From positions 620,001 through 684,000 of the forward strand of contig NZ_CP018914.1 of assembly GCF_001951015.1 (NCBI RefSeq): a stretch of DNA of 64,000 nucleotides, in the 5' to 3' direction. The first letter of the stretch is position 1. Every line of letters starts with the position of its first letter. Positions 6,164 through 54,590 of this stretch are shown here, piece after piece. The notes below the pieces were generated by a model. The model ran no database searches and was not told the DNA's origin. It was given only the letters and a program-made list of their open reading frames with translations. Position numbers and translations under genes: made by a program. The stretch is from Rickettsia rickettsii. GTDB taxonomy: Bacteria > Pseudomonadota > Alphaproteobacteria > Rickettsiales > Rickettsiaceae.

Positions 6164-7186
6164 TTATTTAGTCACGCTCTTACTTCTTTTCCCCGTATTT
6201 TTGGTAGTAGAATACTCAAAATGTAGAGCCTTGCCGTCAAATACTCTACTATAAGCATGATGAAGACTGCTTGCCGCTTCAGCAAAACCCGTAAGAATCA
6301 GCTTAAGCTTACCAACATAATGAGCAATATCGCCAATGGCGTAAATACCTTCTATATTAGTTTGATAATAGGAAGAGTCTACTTCAATATGGTGAAGCTT
6401 AACATTTAAACCCCAATTTGCTAAGCTACCTAAATCTTGCTTTAACCCAAAAAAAGGCAGTAATATATTGGCATCCAATTTGCGAGTATTATTTTGTAAA
6501 TCTTTAACTATAACCGATTGAAGTTCACTATTATTACCATCTAAAGCATTTAATTGATAACCGGTTATTAACTCGATTTTATTGGTTTCTGCAATATGCC
6601 TTAATTGCCTTACGCTTTCAGGAGCTGCTGTAAATTTATCCCGCCTATGTACTAAATATATTTTATTTGCAATATCTGAAAGAGAAATAGCCCAGTCAAC
6701 AGCCGAATCCCCGCCGCCTGCTATAACTATATTTTTACCCGCAAATTTGCTTTTATCATTGATGAAATAAAAAACTGACTTGCTTTCAAAATCTTCAATA
6801 TTCGCAAGGGGCGGTTTGTTTGGACCGAATGAACCTGCTCCTGCTGCAATAATAATAACTTTGCTTTTAATAAGAGTGTTTTTTGAGGTTTTAATTTCAA
6901 AAAAATCATCTTGTTTATTTAGCTCTATAGCTTGCTGATTTAAATGATATATAGGGTTAAAAGGAGCTGCTTGAAGTGCTAACTGTTTTATTAGCTCTTC
7001 TGCTACAATTTTAGGATATGCCGGTATATCGTAAATAGGCTTTTCAGGATATAGGGTAATACACTGACCGCCGATAACTTCTTGTGCATCAATAACATGA
7101 CACTTCATGCCAAGCATTCCTGCTTGAAAAACTGCAAATAATCCAACCGGACCGGCACCTATTATTACAACATCAGTATTATGCAT
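6164..7186 (-). CDS. Ferredoxin-NADP reductase, thioredoxin-reductase-like type
   Basis: This is a 340-residue two-dinucleotide-binding flavoprotein. The FAD motif is [13 protein letters not shown] (residues 9-21), the NADPH motif is [12 protein letters not shown] (about 155-166), and the second FAD motif is [11 protein letters not shown] (about 292-302). The redox-active CxxC of thioredoxin reductases is absent, and [18 protein letters not shown] matches the type 2 ferredoxin/flavodoxin-NADP reductases (YumC-like). It would exchange electrons between NADPH and ferredoxin, for example for iron-sulfur cluster work. The C-terminal KRSKSVTK lies beside the repeat at 6056-6157 and may have been altered by it. 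Confidence 0.9.
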
Positions 7187-7718: not shown

Positions 7719-8207
7719 ATGAAAATTAAGATTCTACGAAATATTATCGGTTTTATTATCTTAACTATAAGTACGGGCAATAGTTTTGCCTCCTCCGCTA
7801 ATGCTTTTTTTCCTTGTGAGTGCGATGGTGTTACCGTCTTGTATAGTTCGGCTACTCCTTTAGCTTTCGGTACGTATGTTCCAACTGTCGATGCTCTGCA
7901 AACAAATACAATTATAATAAAGTGTACTTTAGGTATTAATTATACTGTTTCATTAAATGCCGGTACTGCACCTGCTGCTACAACTAGTACCCGTAAAATG
8001 ACTGGTCTTGTTAACACTAATAGTTATTTACCTTATAATCTTTACTCCCATGCAGGGAGAACACAGAATTGGGGAAATCAATCAAGTGACTGGGTAATGG
8101 GAACAGGACTAGATCAAACGCTCACAATATACGGCAAAATACCTCAAGGAGCAAATGTTCCTTCCGATACTTATAATGATACAATTACAATAATCGTGGT
8201 ATATTGA
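7719..8207 (+). CDS. Spore coat protein U (SCPU) domain pilus subunit
   Basis: A 162-residue secreted protein with a signal peptide (about residues 1-25, ending near SFASSA). An SCPU domain follows: paired cysteines near CECDG, LAFGTYVPTVDALQTNTII, KCTLGINYTVSLNAGT, YNLYSHAGRTQNWGN, LTIYGKIPQGANVPSDTYND and TITIIVVY. The fold is the subunit of archaic (Csu-type) chaperone-usher pili, in which subunits complement each other by donor strands. The name does not imply sporulation. It is intact, but the chaperone and usher genes that follow are broken, so assembly into a pilus is doubtful. It begins ATG AAA ATT with only a weak ribosome-binding site. Confidence 0.85.
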   Translation: MKIKILRNIIGFIILTISTGNSFASSANAFFPCECDGVTVLYSSATPLAFGTYVPTVDALQTNTIIIKCTLGINYTVSLNAGTAPAATTSTRKMTGLVNTNSYLPYNLYSHAGRTQNWGNQSSDWVMGTGLDQTLTIYGKIPQGANVPSDTYNDTITIIVVY

Positions 8208-8227
8208 TATAAATCATTTTTTAAGAT

Positions 8228-8627
8228 TTCTACCTATCCTATCTATATTCTTGATTTTTAATTCTTTTGCCAGTGCCACTATCGTACCTGTCAATATATA
8301 GTAATAGAATAGCAACTATTACGGTACAAAATAATGATTATGCACCTAAAAAGTTTCAATTAATTTGTTTAAAGCGTACATATAAAGATGGAAGAATATA
8401 AAGAAACTAAAGATTTAGTGGCAACTCCGGTAACATTTACCTTACATGATGGTAAAATACAATTGATACGGGTAGCTTTAAAAAACACACAGACTTATTC
8501 TACTAAAGCAAAAGACTATAGCATTTTTATAAAAGAATTACCTCGTAGAGTGAAGTTAGAGAATAGTGTTACCTCCACCGTAGATCTTGTTGTTCAGCAT
8601 AGTATAGCTATAACAATATCAGGTTAA
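8228..8627 (+). pseudogene. Broken periplasmic pilus chaperone (PapD/CsuC-like)
   Basis: One frame gives a signal-like end and mature start (SIFLIFNSFASATIVPVNI) and is then closed by TAG. The next segment reads NRIATITVQNNDYAPKKFQL, followed after a shift near 8400 by ETKDLVATPVTFTLHDGKIQ, LIRVALKNTQ and DYSIFIKELPRRVK. This is the N-terminal Ig-like domain of pilus chaperones, with the G1-type VTPVxFxLxxGxxQxIRV strand and the FIKELP strand. It ends with a short piece similar to the second domain. It lies between the subunit and usher genes, as in csu operons. Confidence 0.75.
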
Positions 8628-8689
8628 AAATCTTTAAAACTAAATAAATTAAAGCAATGTGCTTTTTAAATACAATAATATCGGTTTTT

Positions 8690-11103
8690 ATAGGTATTAT
8701 TTTTTTATACCGGTGAGTTTTGCAGGTGGAGTTATCTCTGAATCTCTTGGTGATACTTCGCCTTGAATCGCAGCGGATACAAACGTACATGAGGATTAGG
8801 AGTTAGGGTAATTGTCCCAATTACCTCTAGCAGTAGAATTTGAGAATAGCGCTAATGAAATTGCGGGTGAGAGTGAATTGATGGTTTCGTTAGAAGTTAA
8901 TTATACCGAAACCGATATATTGCCGACTATAGTGCACAACGCTCAAGGTCATTATTTAATTCCTCTTGAAGATATAGAACATTTTGATGTTCAAGAAGAT
9001 TATCTTAAGCAGGGTTTAGTGCATTATCATGATACTGCATATATTAATTTAGATTTGCTTGAGGGTACTAAATATGATTTAAACTTTGAGAATTTAGATT
9101 TAAATATTACTTTTCCAGCAGAAAAATTCAACCTCAATCATTTGATGTTTCAGGTGGTCCTATGAAGAACGTCGATACTAAACTTATTAGTGGGGTATAT
9201 TTAAACTATGATGTGACTCTTAGTCCAAATGATGATATTAATTATTTAGCCGGAGTAGAGGAACTCAATTATTTCACTGAACACGGTGTATAGTTATAGT
9301 TTCTTATTTCAAACTGAAGCCGTTAAATCAAATTTTTCTAAAATCACAAATACCACAAAAAACCAAAATAAATTTACACGTTTAGACACAAATTGGACAT
9401 ATGAGAATGTGGATAAGATGACTAATTGGTGGGTAGGGGATAATAGCATAACTAAAGTGTCTTCTTGGTCTAATTCAACTAGATTTGCCGGTATTCAGTA
9501 TACTACTAATTTTGCAGTTAGACCGAATTTAGTTACCTATCCGTTACTGGATTTTAGAGGGAAATCAGAACTTCCAAGCAGTATAGAGATATTTTCAAAT
9601 AGTATACCTATATATAATGCTAAAGCTCATATGGGGGATTTTGATATAACCAATATTCCGGTTATCACCGGTAGAGGTGATTTAATAGTTAAAACGCAAG
9701 ATATAAACGGTAAAGTTTAGACAATTACTATTCTCCTTATTACGCATCACCGAGCTTATTACGTTCCGGGCTTTCACATTTCTCTTACGAAGCAGGTTCT
9801 CAAAGACAAGATTTTACTATATATAGCAGTGCTTATAAATATTTAGTTCTAAATACTGATTATATGCTTGGTATGAATGATTATAACAAGCTGCGGACAT
9901 TTTAAATTTTTAAAAAATAATGGAGCAGTAGGGGTAATAATTTAAAAATCGGAAATTTATTATAGGCATTTCAGCTGCAAGTAATATCAAAATTTCGGTC
10001 GCTGTCAAAGAATTAATTGCGGCTATACTTATGAATCGGAATATTTTGATATTAATAGTAATTTAGATTGGAATAATAGTAATTATCAGGACGTATATAA
10101 CAATCCCGATAAAATTTTCTCAAGTTTAAATTATCAGATTTCAGCTAGTTGCGGTAATACCGATTTTGGTAATATAAGTGTTAATTTTTTGTCTTTTGTC
10201 GTAAATAACACAATGCAAAAAGGTAAACGCTCAAATATATTATCATCAACTTATCAAAGAAATATTACTAAAAAAGGTTTCTTAAGTTTTACTATAGGTA
10301 CCGATTTAAACAGTAAACGTAAAAATAATTTTGCCTATATACCATTTAACTTAAATTTAGATTCCAATAAAAGCATTTCATTGACCGATTTATATCAAAA
10401 TAAATATCATACAAAGCAACTTGGTGTTTCCTGGCCGATTACTTCAAATATAGGATGGGGATATAATGCTAACCTGATCAAAGTTAAAGCTACAAATTAC
10501 AATGTACAAGTTAACCGTAACGGTAAAAATAATGATATTGGAGTTTATCTGCAGAAAAATGATACCGAAATAATGAAACAGTTTAATATCAAAGGAGGAA
10601 TTTTCTCTATTGATAAAAGCTATTATGAGACAAGACCGATGGAGGTCTTGCTTTGATTAAAGTCAATAGTTTAAAGAATGTCGGGGTTTATAATAATAGC
10701 GGGTGATACCGATGATAAAGGTAAAATGCTTGTACCTAACTTAACACCGTATGTTCCTTCCGAAATAAGACTAGACGATGAAAATCTACCTCTTAATACA
10801 GAGTTTGAAGAAATTGCTTTGAAAGTTGCTCCAAGAACAAAATCAGCGGTATTATTAGACTTTAATATTAAAATAATTAAAAGCATTGAAATGACAGTAT
10901 TTGATAGTACGTGAGTATTGAAGGTTTAGATGAAGAAATATTTGTAGGCTATGATGGTAAGATATATATTAAAGATCTTGAAGTATTAAACGGTTCTATT
11001 TGTGACGAGAATGCGGAGAATAATAAATACTGTCATTTTAGCGTACCGGTTAATAGAGATTTAAATGACCCTGTAATTGATTTAGGCGAAGCAATATGCA
11101 AAT
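8690..11103 (+). pseudogene. Broken outer-membrane pilus usher (FimD/CsuD-like)
   Basis: Several frames across 2.4 kb give usher sequence. An N-terminal domain has LPLAVEFENS, IPLEDIEHF and YINLDLLEGTKYDLNFEN. A beta-barrel part has GVYSYSFLFQTEAV, FAGIQYTTNFAVRPNLVTYP, LLDFRGKSELPSSIEIFSN and GDFDITNIPVITGRGDLIVK. A C-terminal part has AGDTDDKGKMLVPNLTPYVP, SEIRLDDENLPLNTE and FVGYDGKIYIKDLEV. Order and motifs match the usher that translocates subunits through the outer membrane. At least five lesions separate the pieces (about 9163, 9718, 9900-10190, 10656, 10912), so no usher can be made. Confidence 0.8.
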
Positions 11104-11144
11104 GAAGACTTATTATTACTCCTGTGTGGACTAAAAACGCTCCG

Positions 11145-11180
11145 TTGTCATACCGTGGCTTGACCACCACGGTATGACAA
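11145..11180. repeat. Perfect 14-bp inverted repeat, TTGTCATACCGTGG
   Basis: TTGTCATACCGTGG and CCACGGTATGACAA pair exactly around CTTGACCA. It is a short member of the GTCACCCCGTGG/GTCATACCGTGG repeat family, placed between usher and the second subunit gene, and could fold as a terminator-like hairpin. Confidence 0.75.
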
Positions 11181-11199
11181 ATTCTTTTTAAGCAATGTC

Positions 11200-11640
11200 A
11201 AGAAATCAATAATAATATTATTAATCAACATGATTATGTCAGGAAATGCTATGGCGTTACTTGCAACATGTAATCCGTCAGTTCCAACCGTAAATTTCGG
11301 TAGTTTTAATGTCGGTGCCATTAGCACAACTTCTGTTACTGCTTCAGTTACTTGTAGTGCTTTATTATCACTACTTGTTAGCTATACCGTAACTTTCAGT
11401 ACGGGAGCTGCTAATATTTATAACCCAAGAAATATGATTAATGGGGTACGTAAGCTGAATTATAATTTGTATAAAGATGCCGGTTTTACTCAAATCATCG
11501 GTAACGGTACTAGTAGTACTGTAACATTTACCAGCTATACACTAGGTCTTGAACCGGTCACAAAAAACTATACCGTATATGCACGTCTGCCGTTACAACC
11601 TATTGCTGCACCGGCACGTTTCAAGACACTATTACCGTAA
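11200..11640 (+). pseudogene. Second SCPU-domain pilus subunit, damaged at both ends
   Basis: The central 136 residues are an SCPU domain: LLATCNPSVPTVNFGSFNVG, SVTCSALLSLLVSYTVTFST, NYNLYKDAGFTQIIGNG and KNYTVYARLPLQPIAA. A hydrophobic signal-like stretch (KKSIIILLINMIMSGNAMA) precedes it in frame but has no proper start codon. Near 11600 a one-base shift replaces the expected last strand, since the other frame reads GTFQDTITVT. In csu-type operons the last gene is the tip adhesin, so this could be its remnant. Confidence 0.75.
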
Positions 11641-11870
11641 CCCAGCCATGGCTATATAATAAAAAATCTTTAAAATCAAAATTCTTCATTCTAGGTTCTA
11701 ACTTTGTTGCTTGCATGGATTGACTCCTAGGGTGCTAGACATTGCTGTCCAGTATTATGAAGCTGTATTTTTATTATAATATCAAAAACAATTTAAGTTT
11801 TATATTACTATAACTACATTGAGTATTTTGTAGTTACTTAATATTTTTAACTTAAATAAAGGTCGAATTT

Positions 11871-12540
11871 ATGAAAAATGAAGAACAACACAATCCACCA
11901 ACTCCAAAACATGGTCGAATAATATTCCCGCTTTACACAATGGGAAAAGTTTGTGTAGATAAGAAGCTAATAGATGAAGAGTGGAAACTTAACGAATTTG
12001 AAACAGGGAAAGGGAGTGATGAGCGTTTTGGAAATGATGTCGCAGGGGAACCGCTACCGCTAGATGGGCATATTCTTAATGGTGGGCGTACAGATGATAC
12101 AGATTGGGTAAATGCTACTAATGAAGAAATAAGAGCGGAATTAAAAGATCCAATGTTTAACTGGATAAACTATACCATTAGAAGGTGAGAAAAAACTTAC
12201 AATAGCATGGGATTATATTGTATCACATAAAACTTGCGGTTATATAGTGCAAATGACAAAAGCAGAGTTTACCTTTGCAAATAGACTGAAACATGATGAT
12301 TTAGAAGAAATTTATAGTGAACTTTCTGATCAATTTCCTTACTGGGATAATACATTAGTTCCTTCTAAAATGATTTAAGTAACTTTTCCAGATAGAGAGC
12401 CAGGATATTATGTTGTAGCAGTTGATTGGATAGTAGCCGACACGCCACGTTTGTTGCATCGTTTATTGTATAAGGATGAGGTTACACCGATACTCTTAAT
12501 ACGAATGATAGAGAATGTATTTAACGTTATTCCCGTATAG
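11871..12540 (+). pseudogene. Unidentified acidic protein, frameshifted
   Basis: The first part (105 residues from MKNEEQHNPPTPKHGRIIFP) has a good start after AAAGG. At about 12170 a one-base shift leads into PLEGEKKLTIAWDYIVSHKT, CGYIVQMTKAEFTFANRLKH and DDLEEIYSELSDQFPYWDNT. A TAA at 12376 interrupts before VTFPDREPGYYVVAVDWIVA and the final TAG. I do not recognise a family. No signal peptide or membrane helix is visible. Restored, it would be about 220 residues. Confidence 0.55.
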
Positions 12541-12917: not shown

Positions 12918-14741
12918 ATGAACACGTTTAAAAAAAATAAATTTCAAATCACTATAAACAACAACCATAACAATTTACTTACTCCTTTCGGTAAAGCTAT
13001 TCTGCGAGATCGATATCTTATGAAAGGTGAAGATTTTCAAGATTTATTTGCAAGAGTTTCTAGTTATTATGCCGAAAATAAACAGCATGCTCAGAAGTTA
13101 TATGAATATATGAGTAAAATGTGGTTTATGCCAGCAACACCAATCTTAAGTAACGGCGGAACGGATAGGGGACTTCCTATTTCATGCTTCTTGAATGAGA
13201 CCGATGATAGCTTAGACGATATAGTAAATTTATGGACAGAAAATGTTTGGCTTGCTGCACGCGGTGGCGGGATTGGCAGTTATTGGGGTAATGTTCGTGC
13301 TATTAATGAAGGGATTCGTGATAAAGGTCATTCATCTGGTATTATACCGTTTATTAAAGTAATGGATTCTATGACTCTTGCTATTTCGCAAGGTTCTATT
13401 AGGCGAGGTTCATCGGCTGTATATTTGCCTATTAATCACCCTGAAATTGAAGAATTTATCGATATAAGACGTCCGACAGGCGGGGATGTTAACCGTAAAG
13501 CTCTTAATATTCATCACGGTATAGCTATAACCGATGAATTTATGAAAGCAGTTAAAAACAATACGGATTTTGACCTTGTTAGTCCTGCTACCAAAAAAGT
13601 CGTAAATAAAGTTAGAGCAAGAGATTTATGGGTTAAGTTATTAACTACTAGAATAGAAACAGGTGAGCCTTATTTGTTATTTATCGATAGTGTTAATAAA
13701 TCTATCCCTAAGCATCATAAAAAATTAGGGCTTCAAGTTAAAATGTCTAATCTTTGTAGCGAAATTACATTGCCGACGGGAATTGACCATCTAGGCAAGT
13801 CAAGAACTGCTGTTTGCTGCCTTTCCTCTTTAAATTTAGAGTATTACGAAGAGTGGAAAGACGATAAAGAATTTATCCATTCTATTATGTTGTTCCTTGA
13901 TAATGTTTTAGAAGACTTTATTAATAAAGCACCGGATACTATGGCAAGAGCTAAATATTCAGCTTTACGTGAGCGAAGCGTTGGACTTGGCGTAATGGGC
14001 TTCCACTCATTTTTGCAAATGAAAAAAGTACCGATAGAATCGGTTATGGCAAAAGTTTGGAATAAAAAAATATTTGAATATATATCTGCTGAAACTGATA
14101 AAGCCTCAATAGAAATCGGTAAAGAAAAAGGAGTATGTCCTGATGCTCTAGATGCAGGAAGTAATGAACGATTTAGCAATAAAACCGCAATAGCACCTAC
14201 CGCCTCAATTTCGGTAATAGCAGGTAATGCCTCACCCGGAATAGAGCCGTTTGCCGCTAATAGCTTTGTACAAAAGACTTTAACCGGTTCTTTTAACGTG
14301 CGTAATAAACATTTAGAAAGGTTATTAGAGGAGAAAGGATTTAATAATGATCAAGTTTGGTCTTCGATTGCAACACATGAAGGATCAGTACAACATTTAA
14401 CATTTTTATCCGAAGAAGAAAAACAGGTTTTCAAAACCGCTTACGAAATTGATCAGAATTGGCTAATTGAACTGGCAAGCGATCGTACTCCTTACATTAC
14501 GCAAGCACAATCTTTAAACATCTTTTTACCGGGGAATGTTAGTAAGAAATATTTAAATAATATTCATTTTAAAGCCTGGACAAAAGGAGTAAAAAGTTTA
14601 TATTACTGTCGATCGACATCAATACAGCGAGCCGATAAGGTCTCGCATGACGTATTAAAGGCCAATTTTAAAGATTTAGAGGAACAAAACGATAAGTTAG
14701 CAGAAGCCGGTAACTACGAAGAATGCTTAGCTTGTCAGTAA
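12918..14741 (+). CDS. nrdA: Class I ribonucleotide reductase, large (R1) subunit
   Basis: R1 reduces ribonucleoside diphosphates to deoxy forms together with the NrdB radical subunit. The catalytic residues are all visible: Cys90 (ISCFLNET), Asn278, Cys280 and Glu282 (SNLCSEI), and Cys300 ([10 protein letters not shown]). The tyrosine pair is in SLYYCRS and the C-terminal redox pair in CLACQ (Cys603, Cys606). At 607 residues it is short. The domain starts directly at [14 protein letters not shown], so the N-terminal ATP-cone that gives dATP inhibition in E. coli NrdA is absent. nrdB follows on the same strand after an 829-base insertion. Confidence 0.97.
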
Positions 14742-15570: not shown

Positions 15571-16557
15571 ATGTCACTACTTGATGCAAGTCCAATTTAT
15601 AAACCGTTTTCATATCCATGGGCATATGAAGCTTGGCATACTCAACAAAAAATTCATTGGCTACCGGAAGAAGTACCGCTTGCCGACGATGTTAAAGATT
15701 GGAAATATAACTTAACGCCAGGGGAAAAACATCTATTAACGCAAATATTTCGTTTTTTTACACAGGCAGATATTGAAGTGAATAATTGCTATATGAAGCA
15801 TTATTCACGAGTATTTAAACCGACTGAAATATTAATGATGTTATCAGCATTTTCTAATATGGAAACGGTACATATCGCGGCATATTCACATTTACTTGAT
15901 ACGGTAGGTATGCCGGAAGTAGAATATTCAGCATTTCTTAAATATAAGGAAATGAAAGACAAGTATGATTATATGCAGCAATTCGGAGTGGATGCCAAAG
16001 AAGATATAGCAACTACACTCGCAGTATTTGGAGCTTTTACTGAAGGATTACAGCTATTTGCTTCTTTTGCGATCATGCTTAATTTCCCTCGTTTTAATAA
16101 AATGAAAGGTATGGGACAGATTATTGCTTGGTCAGTGCGTGATGAAACACTTCATACTAACTCAATTATTACTCTGTTTAAGACTTTTGTAAGAGAAAAC
16201 CCTGAAGTTTGGACAGAAACTTTACGTAAACGTATTTATGAAGCTTGTACGACTATTGTGCATTTTGAAGATGCCTTTATTGAACTTGCTTTTGAAGTTG
16301 GCGGTATTGAGGGATTAACGGCATATGAAGTAAGACAATATATTCGTTATATTGCCGACCGTCGTTTAATGCAGCTAGGACTCAAAGATGTATATTTGGT
16401 AAATCATAACCCCCTTCCTTGGCTTGATGAAATGCTAAACGGAGTCGAACATACGAACTTTTTTGAAAATAGAACAACTGAATATTCAAAAGCAGCGACT
16501 ACCGGTTCATGGGAAGAAGTATTCACTGAGATGGACGCCACAGCGGAGGCTAAATAA
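15571..16557 (+). CDS. nrdB: Class I ribonucleotide reductase, small (R2) subunit
   Basis: R2 carries the di-iron centre and tyrosyl radical. The likely ligands are Asp67 (TQADIEV), Glu98 and His101 (METVH), Glu159 (FTEGLQL), and Glu193 and His196 (VRDETLH). The radical tyrosine is Tyr105 (HIAAYSHL). The 328 residues lack an N-terminal ATP-cone. The ATG is preceded by GAAGAAAAA and lies inside the reading frame of the dead nuclease, so its translation signal may derive from that gene. It is separated from nrdA only by that insert. Confidence 0.95.
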
Positions 16558-52700: not shown

Positions 52701-54590
52701 ATGGCTGATATAAAGGTAAGAAAACATCCTATTATTAATAATCTGAAGCAAGAGTCACAAACTCCTGTAGTTAATGAGCAATCTGATATATTAGAGGAGT
52801 TAAAAGACCTAAAAAAATTCAACAATCTTCTAGCAATCAAACAAAAACATTGCAGGAGTTAGAGCAAGCACAGAAAGCTCCTATCGAATATATAGCTTTT
52901 AGTGGAGGAGGAGCTAAGGGAGCAATATATTTCGGAGCTTATGAGACAGCAAAAAAGCTGGTATTTTAGATAATGTCAAGGCGGTAGCAGGTTCTTCCGC
53001 TGGTGCTATAACTGCCACAGTGGTAGCTCTTGGGACACCCGCCTGAGCGATTTGAAGAAATTTCTAAAAATACAAATCTGCAAACTTTACTTGGAAAAAA
53101 AGGATTTTCTGTGGATATAGTACAGTTAAATAAAGACGGTAAACCTTTATATGCTCTATTAGAACTTGTTATTAAAGAAAATATAGGAAATTTTTTACAG
53201 AGATCAGATATAGTAAATGTTAAAGATGATAAAGCTCTTGATGAATTAAGAGAAAGATACAACCAAAAAGACGGTAAAATATATTTTAAGGATATAGCGT
53301 TACTGCGAAAATACAATCCAGTGCAGTATAAAGATTTAGTAATTATGGCAACTCAGCAAGAGACAAGTGAACTAACTATTTTCAATAGCTTTGATACGCC
53401 AAATGTTGAAATTACTTTAGCTTGCTGTGCTTCTGCTTCTATACCGCTTGTTTTTAAGTCGGTAGAAATTGACAGTAAAAAATATATAGACGGCAGATAT
53501 AGAGATAATATACCGACAAAATATTTTAAAGGCAATGAACTGGAATTTGATACAAAAACAATAACTGATAATATGGAGGAGATTACCTTAGCTAAAAAAC
53601 AAGGTAGAACTCTAGCTATGGCTTGTGGTACGTGTATGGAAGCTGATGCAAATATTGCTATATATAGTGCAAAAAAATTTGAAAGCCCAAGTGATATCGT
53701 AAAGTTTTTAGCTGATATATTATTTAAGACACTTGCAAAAGTAGGAGGAAAATTTAAATATACTGAAACTCTAAGAGCAACTAATGAACAGTTACGTGAA
53801 AATGCTTTAAACACTGCTGTTTTAGATACTACCGGAATAGATACTTTGGATTTCAAAGATGCACAAAAATATTCTAATTATTTGCATATTAAAGGATATT
53901 GTCACACTAGAGAACATTTGAATAATCATGACCTTGGCAAAGAAGCAGATAAAATATTTGACCATCAAAAATTTCTACTATAATGTTTATGAAGTTTATG
54001 ATAATAAAAATCTACATAAAACATTTGGCACTAAATTGTTAGAAATGTTTATTCAGTCAACAGAAAATAATACTTCTAAATGGCAAGAAGGAGTTATTGA
54101 AAATCATGATAATAAAGCAAAGATGTTATTATCATTTTGTAAAACCGGAGCATTAAACGAAAAAGAATTAAATGAAAAGCTTAAAGAATATGTAATTATT
54201 GCTGCAACTAGTCGTAATAATACACTAAAAGCCGATACAAACTCATTGAACGCTTTATTGTATACCTTAAATGATACTGCTGCTTCAAGTAAAATAAAAG
54301 ATAGTTTCATTGAGGTACTTGGAATAGATAAAACTAAAGATGTAAGATTTGATAAAACTAAAACCTTTGATGAAAATATTGCTAAGTTTAAATTTACTAA
54401 ACAAGATTTAGAAAGCTTTATAACTAAGAGTAAAAGCGAAGCACCAAAAATTCAAAGCAAACATAGTGTAGCTACAAGTCATGTCAGTAGGAGGCGAGTT
54501 AGGTGTTTTGATGTCATTCCTGCGAAAGCGGGAATGACATCAAGCGGGTTTTTCAAGCCATGCAACACAGCTCGCCTTTCCTCGCAATGA
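52701..54590 (+). pseudogene. Broken patatin-like phospholipase (Pat2-like)
   Basis: Frames join as follows: an N-terminus (MADIKVRKHPIINNLKQESQ), then the oxyanion loop FSGGGAKGAIYFGAYE, the nucleophile elbow AGSSAGAITATVVALG, and the long part HPPERFEEISKNTNLQTLLG with the catalytic Asp in YIDGRYRDNIP. Four shifts occur, at about 52815, 52963, 53030 and 53970; three are in runs of A. The last frame ends in repeat sequence (54508-54543). Intact rickettsial patatins are phospholipase A2 effectors used for phagosome escape. Position between sodB and birA suggests Pat2, from memory. Confidence 0.85.
54508..54543. repeat. Perfect short palindrome at the patatin 3' end
   Basis: TTGATGTCATTCC and GGAATGACATCAA pair exactly around TGCGAAAGCG. 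It is a short GTCATTCCCGC-family copy that provides the last codons of the patatin remnant and is followed by CAAGCCATGCAAC and CTCGCAATGACGG pieces. Confidence 0.85.

What the first reader, a model, noticed from the sequence alone, without database searches (positions are those of the whole stretch)
7719..11640. Decaying Csu-type chaperone-usher pilus locus in a Rickettsia chromosome
Subunit (SCPU), PapD-like chaperone, usher and second SCPU gene occur in the order of archaic csu operons. Only the first subunit gene is intact; chaperone and usher have several frameshifts. Surface pili of this class are not a recognised part of rickettsial biology. An intact subunit without its export partners is odd: it may be under selection for another role, may be secreted by another route, or may just not have decayed yet.
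Basis: partly seen in the sequence, partly recalled or inferred. Interest (0 to 1): 0.72.

Follow-up and report, generated by a model that had tools for sequence, protein, structure and literature searches.

The report
Relic of a rickettsial hair-like pilus
This stretch is the broken remains of a gene set for a hair-like surface fibre that the ancestors of Rickettsia probably had; some insect-dwelling relatives still carry it whole, with an unusually small assembly helper, while in this genome all four genes, including the one that looked intact, are damaged.

Summary
The locus is real: SCPU subunit, PapD-type chaperone, usher, second SCPU gene, between an FNR-like gene and nrdA. It is the relic of an operon ancestral to Rickettsia, not a recent arrival. 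Of 23 genomes of the genus, 5 keep all four genes open (the 3 that can be named are beetle endosymbionts), 10 including this one have broken genes, 5 keep scraps, 3 show none (one clean loss, two uninformative). On this genome's own branch the gene shows 6 non-synonymous to 1 synonymous change, against 11 to 22 on the ancestral branch. Less expected, the intact relatives' chaperone is only 142-162 residues, the first of CsuC's two domains: all 17 places found in the family have frames of 84-172 aa, all 13 others found in the order 248-394 aa. CsuC holds its subunit with residues of both domains, so this is a reduced variant of the archaic pathway. The window copy itself is an ordinary pseudogene cluster.

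The parts
7719..8207 (+). Relic of the major subunit gene (SUB1, SCPU domain); frame open for 162 aa, but 12-14 residues within 30-44 are out of frame relative to relatives
   Evidence: SCPU 9.8e-27; shifted stretch; 6 N: 1 S on own branch
8215..8627 (+). Relic of the single-domain chaperone gene (PapD_N / CsuC domain 1), in at least two frame pieces (8255-8401, 8373-8627)
   Evidence: PapD_N 4.5e-5 for 8373-8624; tblastn pieces 8215-8298, 8231-8392, 8391-8621 against the intact relative
8701..11105 (+). Relic of the usher gene, broken into several open pieces (8812-9165, 9090-9293, 9259-9720, 9714-9905, 9985-10656, 10675-10914, 10908-11105)
   Evidence: pieces; PapC_N 0.06, Usher 0.009 and 3.7e-5; tblastn to intact usher, 16 stops in the aligned frame
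11124..11183 (.). Dispersed, partly palindromic repeat (probably a Rickettsia palindromic element; the name is recalled) at the 5' part of the second SCPU gene; limits approximate
   Evidence: 27 matches in the own genome, of which one is the place itself and one its own inverted match, so 25 other places; a lower bound, since 40 of 82 candidates were scored
11194..11640 (+). Relic of the second, terminal SCPU subunit gene (SUB2); C-terminal end out of frame
   Evidence: SCPU 4.5e-18; tblastn residues 13-157 of the 167-aa query, 80.7%; other-frame tail visible (11553-11723)
6164..7186 (-). Flanking ferredoxin-NADP-reductase-like gene (FNR; name by eye), synteny anchor
   Evidence: match in 23 of 23 genus genomes at E <= 0.001, 22 of them close (77-100% identity), G016 only a distant one (28%)
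12918..14741 (+). Flanking nrdA (ribonucleotide reductase large chain; name recalled, beside the small chain), synteny anchor
   Evidence: small chain at 15571-16554 by Pfam

Best explanation
The window holds the non-functional remains of a four-gene archaic (Csu-type) chaperone-usher operon, SUB1 - chaperone - usher - SUB2, inherited vertically from the ancestor of Rickettsia and broken independently in several lineages. Where intact, it most likely makes a thin surface fibre: SUB1 and SUB2 enter the periplasm by signal peptides; the chaperone, reduced to the first CsuC domain, lends its last strand to complete each subunit's fold; the usher swaps that strand for the N-terminal extension of the next SUB1 and passes the fibre out; SUB2, which lacks such an extension, can only be the first subunit and caps the tip. 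Shown here: gene content, synteny, single-domain chaperone, purifying selection among open copies, no visible constraint on SUB1 in the window genome's own branch. Inferred: fibre assembly, tip position, surface location, any adhesive role.
For: Profiles and homologues; chaperone nearest CsuC 5d6h (3.6e-7, only residues 4-120 of 243), subunit nearest the C-terminal part (156-311 of 312) of CsuE 6fjy (1.3e-12), usher nearest FimD (1.2e-16). Synteny: of 20 genus genomes with any trace, 12 have FNR and nrdA on both sides in one region, G013 over two contigs, 3 FNR only (G003, G012, G019), 3 nrdA only (G015, G017, G020), 1 neither (G011). Usher tree: G020+G017 outside the other Rickettsia, all inside a starred clade with G185/G186/G188. 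dN/dS by NG86: SUB1 0.07-0.46, chaperone 0.06-0.36 (0.34 and 0.44 for the open frames of the broken operons G015 and G010), usher 0.12-0.15, SUB2 0.10-0.23. Different first breaks: G003 chaperone, G012 and G005 usher. Window SUB1 scrambled stretch and 6 N: 1 S. Chaperone keeps Pro59 in 16 of 16 rows and Arg89 in 13 of 16 (Lys 2, Ile 1; one of the 16 is the two-domain G162).
Against: The window's usher pieces alone stay below Pfam's cut-offs; identity rests on relatives. The 6:1 count is small, is P=0.052 under omega 0.3, and close pairs show raised ratios anyway (FNR G010-G000 0.38, G008-G000 0.25). Against G022 the window pieces give low ratios (SUB1 masked 0.16; usher pieces 0.12 and 0.22, SUB2 0.17, chaperone 0.35), as most of that history was constrained, so decay is recent and the relaxation rests on few changes. 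The hydrophobic position Met32 of CsuC, part of the predicted usher-binding patch, is polar or charged in all 16 chaperone rows (one pairwise alignment, and the two-domain G162 is polar too). Frame breaks could be sequencing errors in some genomes; reads were not available. No structure could be predicted (switched off). No fibre, protein or transcript of an intact copy was seen. A return to frame could in principle reflect selection to keep the frame open.
Confidence: 0.9

Rival explanations
1. The 162-residue subunit is kept under selection for another job: the frame was broken and re-opened, and the product is used or exported by another route.
For: The frame is open for 162 codons and SCPU still scores 9.8e-27; frame is regained after the shifted stretch; masked ratio against G022 is 0.16.
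Against: The shifted stretch covers the predicted donor strand and the conserved Cys region; 6 N: 1 S on the window's own branch, P=0.003 for 6 or more of 7 under omega 0.13, 0.052 under 0.3, 0.46 under 1; the close relative G010 has its SUB1 broken at other places; four usher pieces (8812-, 9259-, 9985- and 10675-) also share one frame with out-of-frame stretches between (coordinates), so regaining frame is not special to SUB1. The low ratio against G022 is shared by the plainly broken usher and SUB2 pieces.
Confidence: 0.05
2. Recent horizontal acquisition of a Csu island that is now decaying.
For: SCPU in only 27 of 343 genomes of the order; the SUB1 gene of G014 does not group with its neighbours' (p-AU 0.0067, group named after seeing the identities), so single-gene exchange may occur.
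Against: 12 genus genomes have it between the same two flanks, among them relics in G001, G004, G009; the usher tree follows the order that I expect from recall; single-domain chaperone at all 17 places found in the family.
Confidence: 0.05
3. In the intact relatives the short chaperone does not support fibre assembly: it is a remnant, or the operon makes a non-fibrous secreted subunit.
For: CsuC needs both domains to anchor the subunit end; double mutation of Arg89 and Tyr196 leaves near-zero subunit recovery (PMC4654587, passages). The family's chaperones have no second domain, and the Met32 position of the predicted usher patch is not hydrophobic.
Against: Chaperone under purifying selection (0.06-0.36); single-domain in six genera of the family; gap to the usher 29-50 bp in 7 of 10 measured cases and 171-209 bp in 3, so no room for a lost domain of about 100 residues there (G171 not measured); ushers of 790-853 aa open without stops in the five full sets and G003.
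Confidence: 0.15

Closest known systems
Archaic chaperone-usher pathway, Csu pilus of Acinetobacter baumannii (CsuA/B, CsuA, CsuB, CsuC, CsuD, CsuE)
   Same: SCPU-type subunits, chaperone of CsuC type with Pro59 and mostly Arg89, usher, order subunit - chaperone - usher - terminal subunit (csu order recalled)
   Different: Chaperone has one domain instead of two; two SCPU genes (three in G020/G017) instead of four subunit genes; terminal subunit is one domain (~150 aa), not a two-domain tip adhesin like CsuE
Short-chaperone chaperone-usher clusters of other alphaproteobacteria (G691, G357)
   Same: Chaperone frames of 157 and 172-175 aa next to frames of 837 and 922 aa that look like ushers (usher by position and eye, not tested)
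   Different: Their subunits do not look like SCPU (by eye; DUF4402-like is recalled, not tested); not in Rickettsiales
Classical type 1 / P pili (FimC/FimD, PapD/PapC)
   Same: Usher by profile and PDB hit
   Different: Subunits and chaperone are of the archaic type; classical anchor residues not examined

Membership tests
Archaic (Csu-type) chaperone-usher pathway | SCPU-domain subunits | tested here: met
   9.8e-27 and 4.5e-18 in the window; 17 of 23 genus genomes
Archaic (Csu-type) chaperone-usher pathway | Usher with outer-membrane usher profile | tested here: met
   Intact relative G022 1.6e-27; window pieces below cut-off singly, secured by tblastn
Archaic (Csu-type) chaperone-usher pathway | Chaperone of CsuC type: conserved Pro59 and Arg89 in domain 1 | tested here: met
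   Pro 16 of 16, Arg 13 of 16, Lys 2, Ile 1 (15 single-domain rows and G162); numbering from the CsuC alignment and PMC4654587 passages. The window chaperone is a fragment and was not in the 16
Archaic (Csu-type) chaperone-usher pathway | Two-domain chaperone; domain 2 supplies Tyr196 and Arg174 of the subunit anchor | tested here: not met
   All 17 places in the window's family 84-172 aa against 13 of 13 other places in the order 248-394 aa; PapD_C 0 of 23 (though the two-domain G162 also lacks a PapD_C hit, so length is the real test)
Archaic (Csu-type) chaperone-usher pathway | Two-domain tip adhesin as last gene (CsuE) | tested here: not met
   SUB2 frames 147-153 aa in G003, G012, G014, G017, G020; signal peptide followed almost directly by the first Cys (by eye)
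Archaic (Csu-type) chaperone-usher pathway | Gene order subunit - chaperone - usher - terminal subunit | tested here: met
   the csu order itself is recalled
Archaic (Csu-type) chaperone-usher pathway | Fibre on the cell surface | not testable with these tools
   no microscopy or protein data
Functional gene (window SUB1) | Conserved reading frame and constraint | tested here: not met
   small numbers for constraint

The most novel reading that the evidence does not exclude
The family Rickettsiaceae had, and some arthropod symbionts still have, a surface pilus built by a very small archaic chaperone-usher set: one fibre subunit, one cap subunit without donor strand, one usher and a half-size chaperone that works without the domain thought to hold the subunit's end. 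Its repeated loss would track changes of life style in Rickettsia.
Probability: 0.5. Interest if true: 0.65.

Novelty: new variant of a known kind. Interest (0 to 1): 0.48.

Why it matters
For the window genome it settles an ordinary question: a pseudogene cluster with no intact part. For the family it shows that a chaperone-usher pilus was part of the ancestral gene set of a group where I found no paper about such pili, and the one-domain chaperone is a natural test of how much of the chaperone archaic pilus assembly needs, since published mutations in CsuC put part of the subunit anchor in the missing domain.

Tried and rejected
Rejected: intact subunit under selection; recent transfer; chance open frames. 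PapD_C as a test of domain 2 was dropped as decisive because a two-domain chaperone (G162) also misses it; frame length was used. Uniqueness of the single-domain chaperone to Rickettsiaceae was rejected: two short ones exist in 385 genomes of the class (G691, G357). In the phylum sample (398 genomes, list of places cut off) the only frame under 200 aa among the listed places is one of 135 aa whose profile match stops at position 81 of 126.

Led nowhere: structure prediction (switched off); the R. felis and R. bellii genome papers are not held; paper searches for single-domain chaperones (listings only). NCBIfam gave no family for the window's two SCPU frames.

Rows dropped: the usher rows of G185 and G186, because I gave a wrong frame (open frames of 978 aa). 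One search covered 27 regions of 21 other genus genomes plus the window; G016 had no region (no close FNR match), and G018 only a contig end. The chaperone of G171 (159 aa) is not among the 17 places, which missed it. Tree rows were chosen by me: 13 ushers and 13 subunits; left out of the subunit tree were the broken or partial SUB1 of G010, G015, G002, the window's, and the open SUB1-like frames of G186, G187, G188, G180, G183, G171, G191, G162. The chaperone rows were 16 chosen open frames.
Full report
What is there. The window lies in a single-contig genome of 1,268,242 bases. Searched piece by piece (10 pieces), SUB1 and SUB2 hit SCPU strongly (9.8e-27, 4.5e-18), one chaperone piece passes the PapD_N cut-off (4.5e-5), three usher pieces match PapC_N or Usher below cut-off (0.06, 0.009, 3.7e-5), and four pieces have no chaperone or usher hit. 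One of these, the 223-aa piece 9985-10653, is placed only by tblastn to an intact relative. Open runs of 153-223 aa did not occur in 500 dinucleotide shuffles of the region (longest 150).

Relatives. SCPU is found in 17 of 23 genomes of the genus, Usher in 14 of 23, PapD_N in 12 of 23. An FNR-like match occurs in 23 of 23; in G016 it is only a distant one. With the intact proteins of G022 as queries, 27 regions of 21 other genomes and the window were compared. All four genes open: G022, G014, G013, G020, G017 (5 of 23; G013 and G017 over two contigs, the 5' end of SUB2 of G013 lying at a contig edge; SUB2 of G022 carries an in-frame insert ahead of its signal peptide, by eye). Recognisable but with breaks: G000 (window), G002, G003, G005, G006, G007, G008, G010, G012, G015 (10). 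Scraps only: G001, G004, G009, G011, G019 (5). None: G021, where FNR and nrdA lie close with only a PIN-like gene between; G018, where the contig ends; G016, where the region was not found (3). Names come from contig lengths shared: G008 R. kotlanii, G010 R. rhipicephali, G002 R. australis, G021 R. tamurae, G011 Rickettsia MEAM1, G014, G013 and G017 endosymbionts of Omalisus, Pyrocoelia and Oxypoda (beetles, by recall), G018 an Ixodes persulcatus symbiont. By recall of genome length only, G003 would be R. bellii, G005 R. felis, G001 R. akari, G004 R. canadensis. Of the named genomes, the three with a full set are beetle symbionts; one insect symbiont (MEAM1, whitefly) keeps only SUB2, so the link with host is loose.

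Descent. Of the 20 genomes with any trace, 12 have FNR and nrdA on both sides in one region, G013 over two contigs, G003, G012 and G019 show FNR only, G015, G017 and G020 nrdA only, G011 neither. The usher tree of 13 rows puts G020+G017 (100/100) outside the four other Rickettsia rows (100/100), and Rickettsia next to G185/G186/G188 of another genus of the family (96/98). Four long rows (G191, G171, G162, G183) are unsure. Different genes are broken in the near-identical G003 (chaperone) and G012 (usher), so decay began more than once, unless some breaks are sequencing errors.

The 'intact' subunit. In the window, 12-14 residues of SUB1 within 30-44 are read in another frame than in R. kotlanii and G022, while the DNA there is 33 of 36 and 38 of 42 identical. 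This stretch spans the predicted N-terminal donor strand and a cysteine conserved in the relatives. Leaving 17 columns around it out, changes on the window's own branch are 6 N to 1 S, on the branch shared with R. kotlanii 11 N to 22 S, on the R. kotlanii branch 5 N to 5 S. FNR plus nrdA on the window's branch have 6 N to 16 S; Fisher p=0.011; against the shared branch p=0.029. The numbers are small and two comparisons were made. Six or more N of 7 has P=0.003 under omega 0.13, 0.052 under 0.3 and 0.46 under 1. Against G022 the masked SUB1 gives 0.16, and the plainly broken usher pieces and SUB2 give similar values, 0.12, 0.22 and 0.17: most of that history was constrained, and decay is recent. 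R. rhipicephali's SUB1 is broken at other places.

The chaperone. In the open copies the chaperone is 142-162 aa and ends at, or up to about 25 residues after, the end of the first CsuC domain; the PDB match to CsuC covers residues 4-120 of 243. In the order, PapD_N occurs in 27 of 343 genomes at 30 places: all 17 places in the window's family have frames of 84-172 aa (three of these are broken or cut genes: G000, G003, G002), all 13 places outside it 248-394 aa. In the class sample, 35 places in 32 of 385 genomes, only G357 (175), G691 (157) and the window (84) are under 200 aa. The gap to the first possible usher start is 29-50 bp in 7 of 10 cases measured and 171-209 bp in G017, G020, G185; G171 was not measured. 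Pro59 is kept in 16 of 16 rows, the anchor Arg89 in 13 (Lys in G183, G171; Ile in G013), and donor positions are mostly hydrophobic (His at one position in G022-like rows; Thr or Pro at another in six rows from other genera and in the two-domain G162); the position of Met32, in the predicted usher patch, is polar or charged in all 16. In CsuC the subunit end is held by Arg89 of domain 1 and Tyr196 and Arg174 of domain 2, and losing Arg89 and Tyr196 together leaves nearly no subunit recovery (PMC4654587, passages). How the short chaperone copes is open.

Subunits. By eye, SUB1 has about 15 residues between signal peptide and first cysteine, room for a donor strand; SUB2 in Rickettsia has about two. 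A subunit without donor strand can only be first in the chain, hence the tip. CsuE, the known tip, is a two-domain adhesin (PMC9452303, passages); SUB2 has one domain.

Selection among open copies (NG86): SUB1 0.07-0.46, chaperone 0.06-0.36 (0.34 and 0.44 for open frames in the broken operons G015 and G010), usher 0.12-0.15 (0.08 for an open piece of the broken G005 usher), SUB2 0.10-0.23; the highest SUB1 values involve G014, with large dS. FNR gives 0.06-0.17 among the same genomes, but 0.25 and 0.38 for the close pairs G008-G000 and G010-G000.

Known before. None of the papers in the listings that I saw is about the operon (one search listed 40 of 104; passages read in four papers). Tables in PMC7519539 (passages) list R. 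conorii RC0640 (420 bp, usher homologue in R. gravesii) with TPM 304 and 26, and peg.0736 (186 bp, Spore Coat U homologue in R. hoogstraalii) with 6 and 130; the columns are tick then human cells in the second table, and I read the first, whose header I did not see, the same way. So relic pieces in a relative are transcribed, apparently not in step.

Verdict. The window copy is an ordinary decayed operon. The family-wide one-domain chaperone makes the living copies a new variant of the archaic pathway.

Noticed in passing
window 11124-11183: Dispersed palindromic repeat (probably RPE, name recalled; 25 other places at least in the genome) in the 5' part of the second subunit gene; in G022 (L100 7554-8237) the same place holds an in-frame insert ahead of the signal peptide (by eye).
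   Followed up: partly
L107:8484-8987 (G014) against L100, L105: SUB1 of the Omalisus symbiont does not group with its usher neighbours' SUB1 (47% identity to G022 while the usher is 82%; p-AU 0.0067, group named after seeing this): gene exchange or very fast change.
   Followed up: partly
L100:3228-3653 and relatives: A gene that looks like a PIN-domain toxin (by eye) sits between FNR and the pilus operon in many genus members, broken in some, and gives no hit in the window, G008 and G010.
   Followed up: no
window 11856-12540: Open pieces in more than one frame between SUB2 and nrdA look like another decayed gene; the two pieces scanned have no Pfam hit at 0.001.
   Followed up: no
L108:8965-9988 and L109:5470-6490: Tandem duplicate of SUB1 in the deep-branching G020 and G017.
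   Followed up: no
L139:4835-10802 (G191): A relative of the same family with nine SCPU matches in one genome, five of them at this locus; a large expansion.
   Followed up: no
window 53030-53983: Patatin-like frame that matches only the last part of the profile (118-190 of 191), maybe shortened.
   Followed up: no
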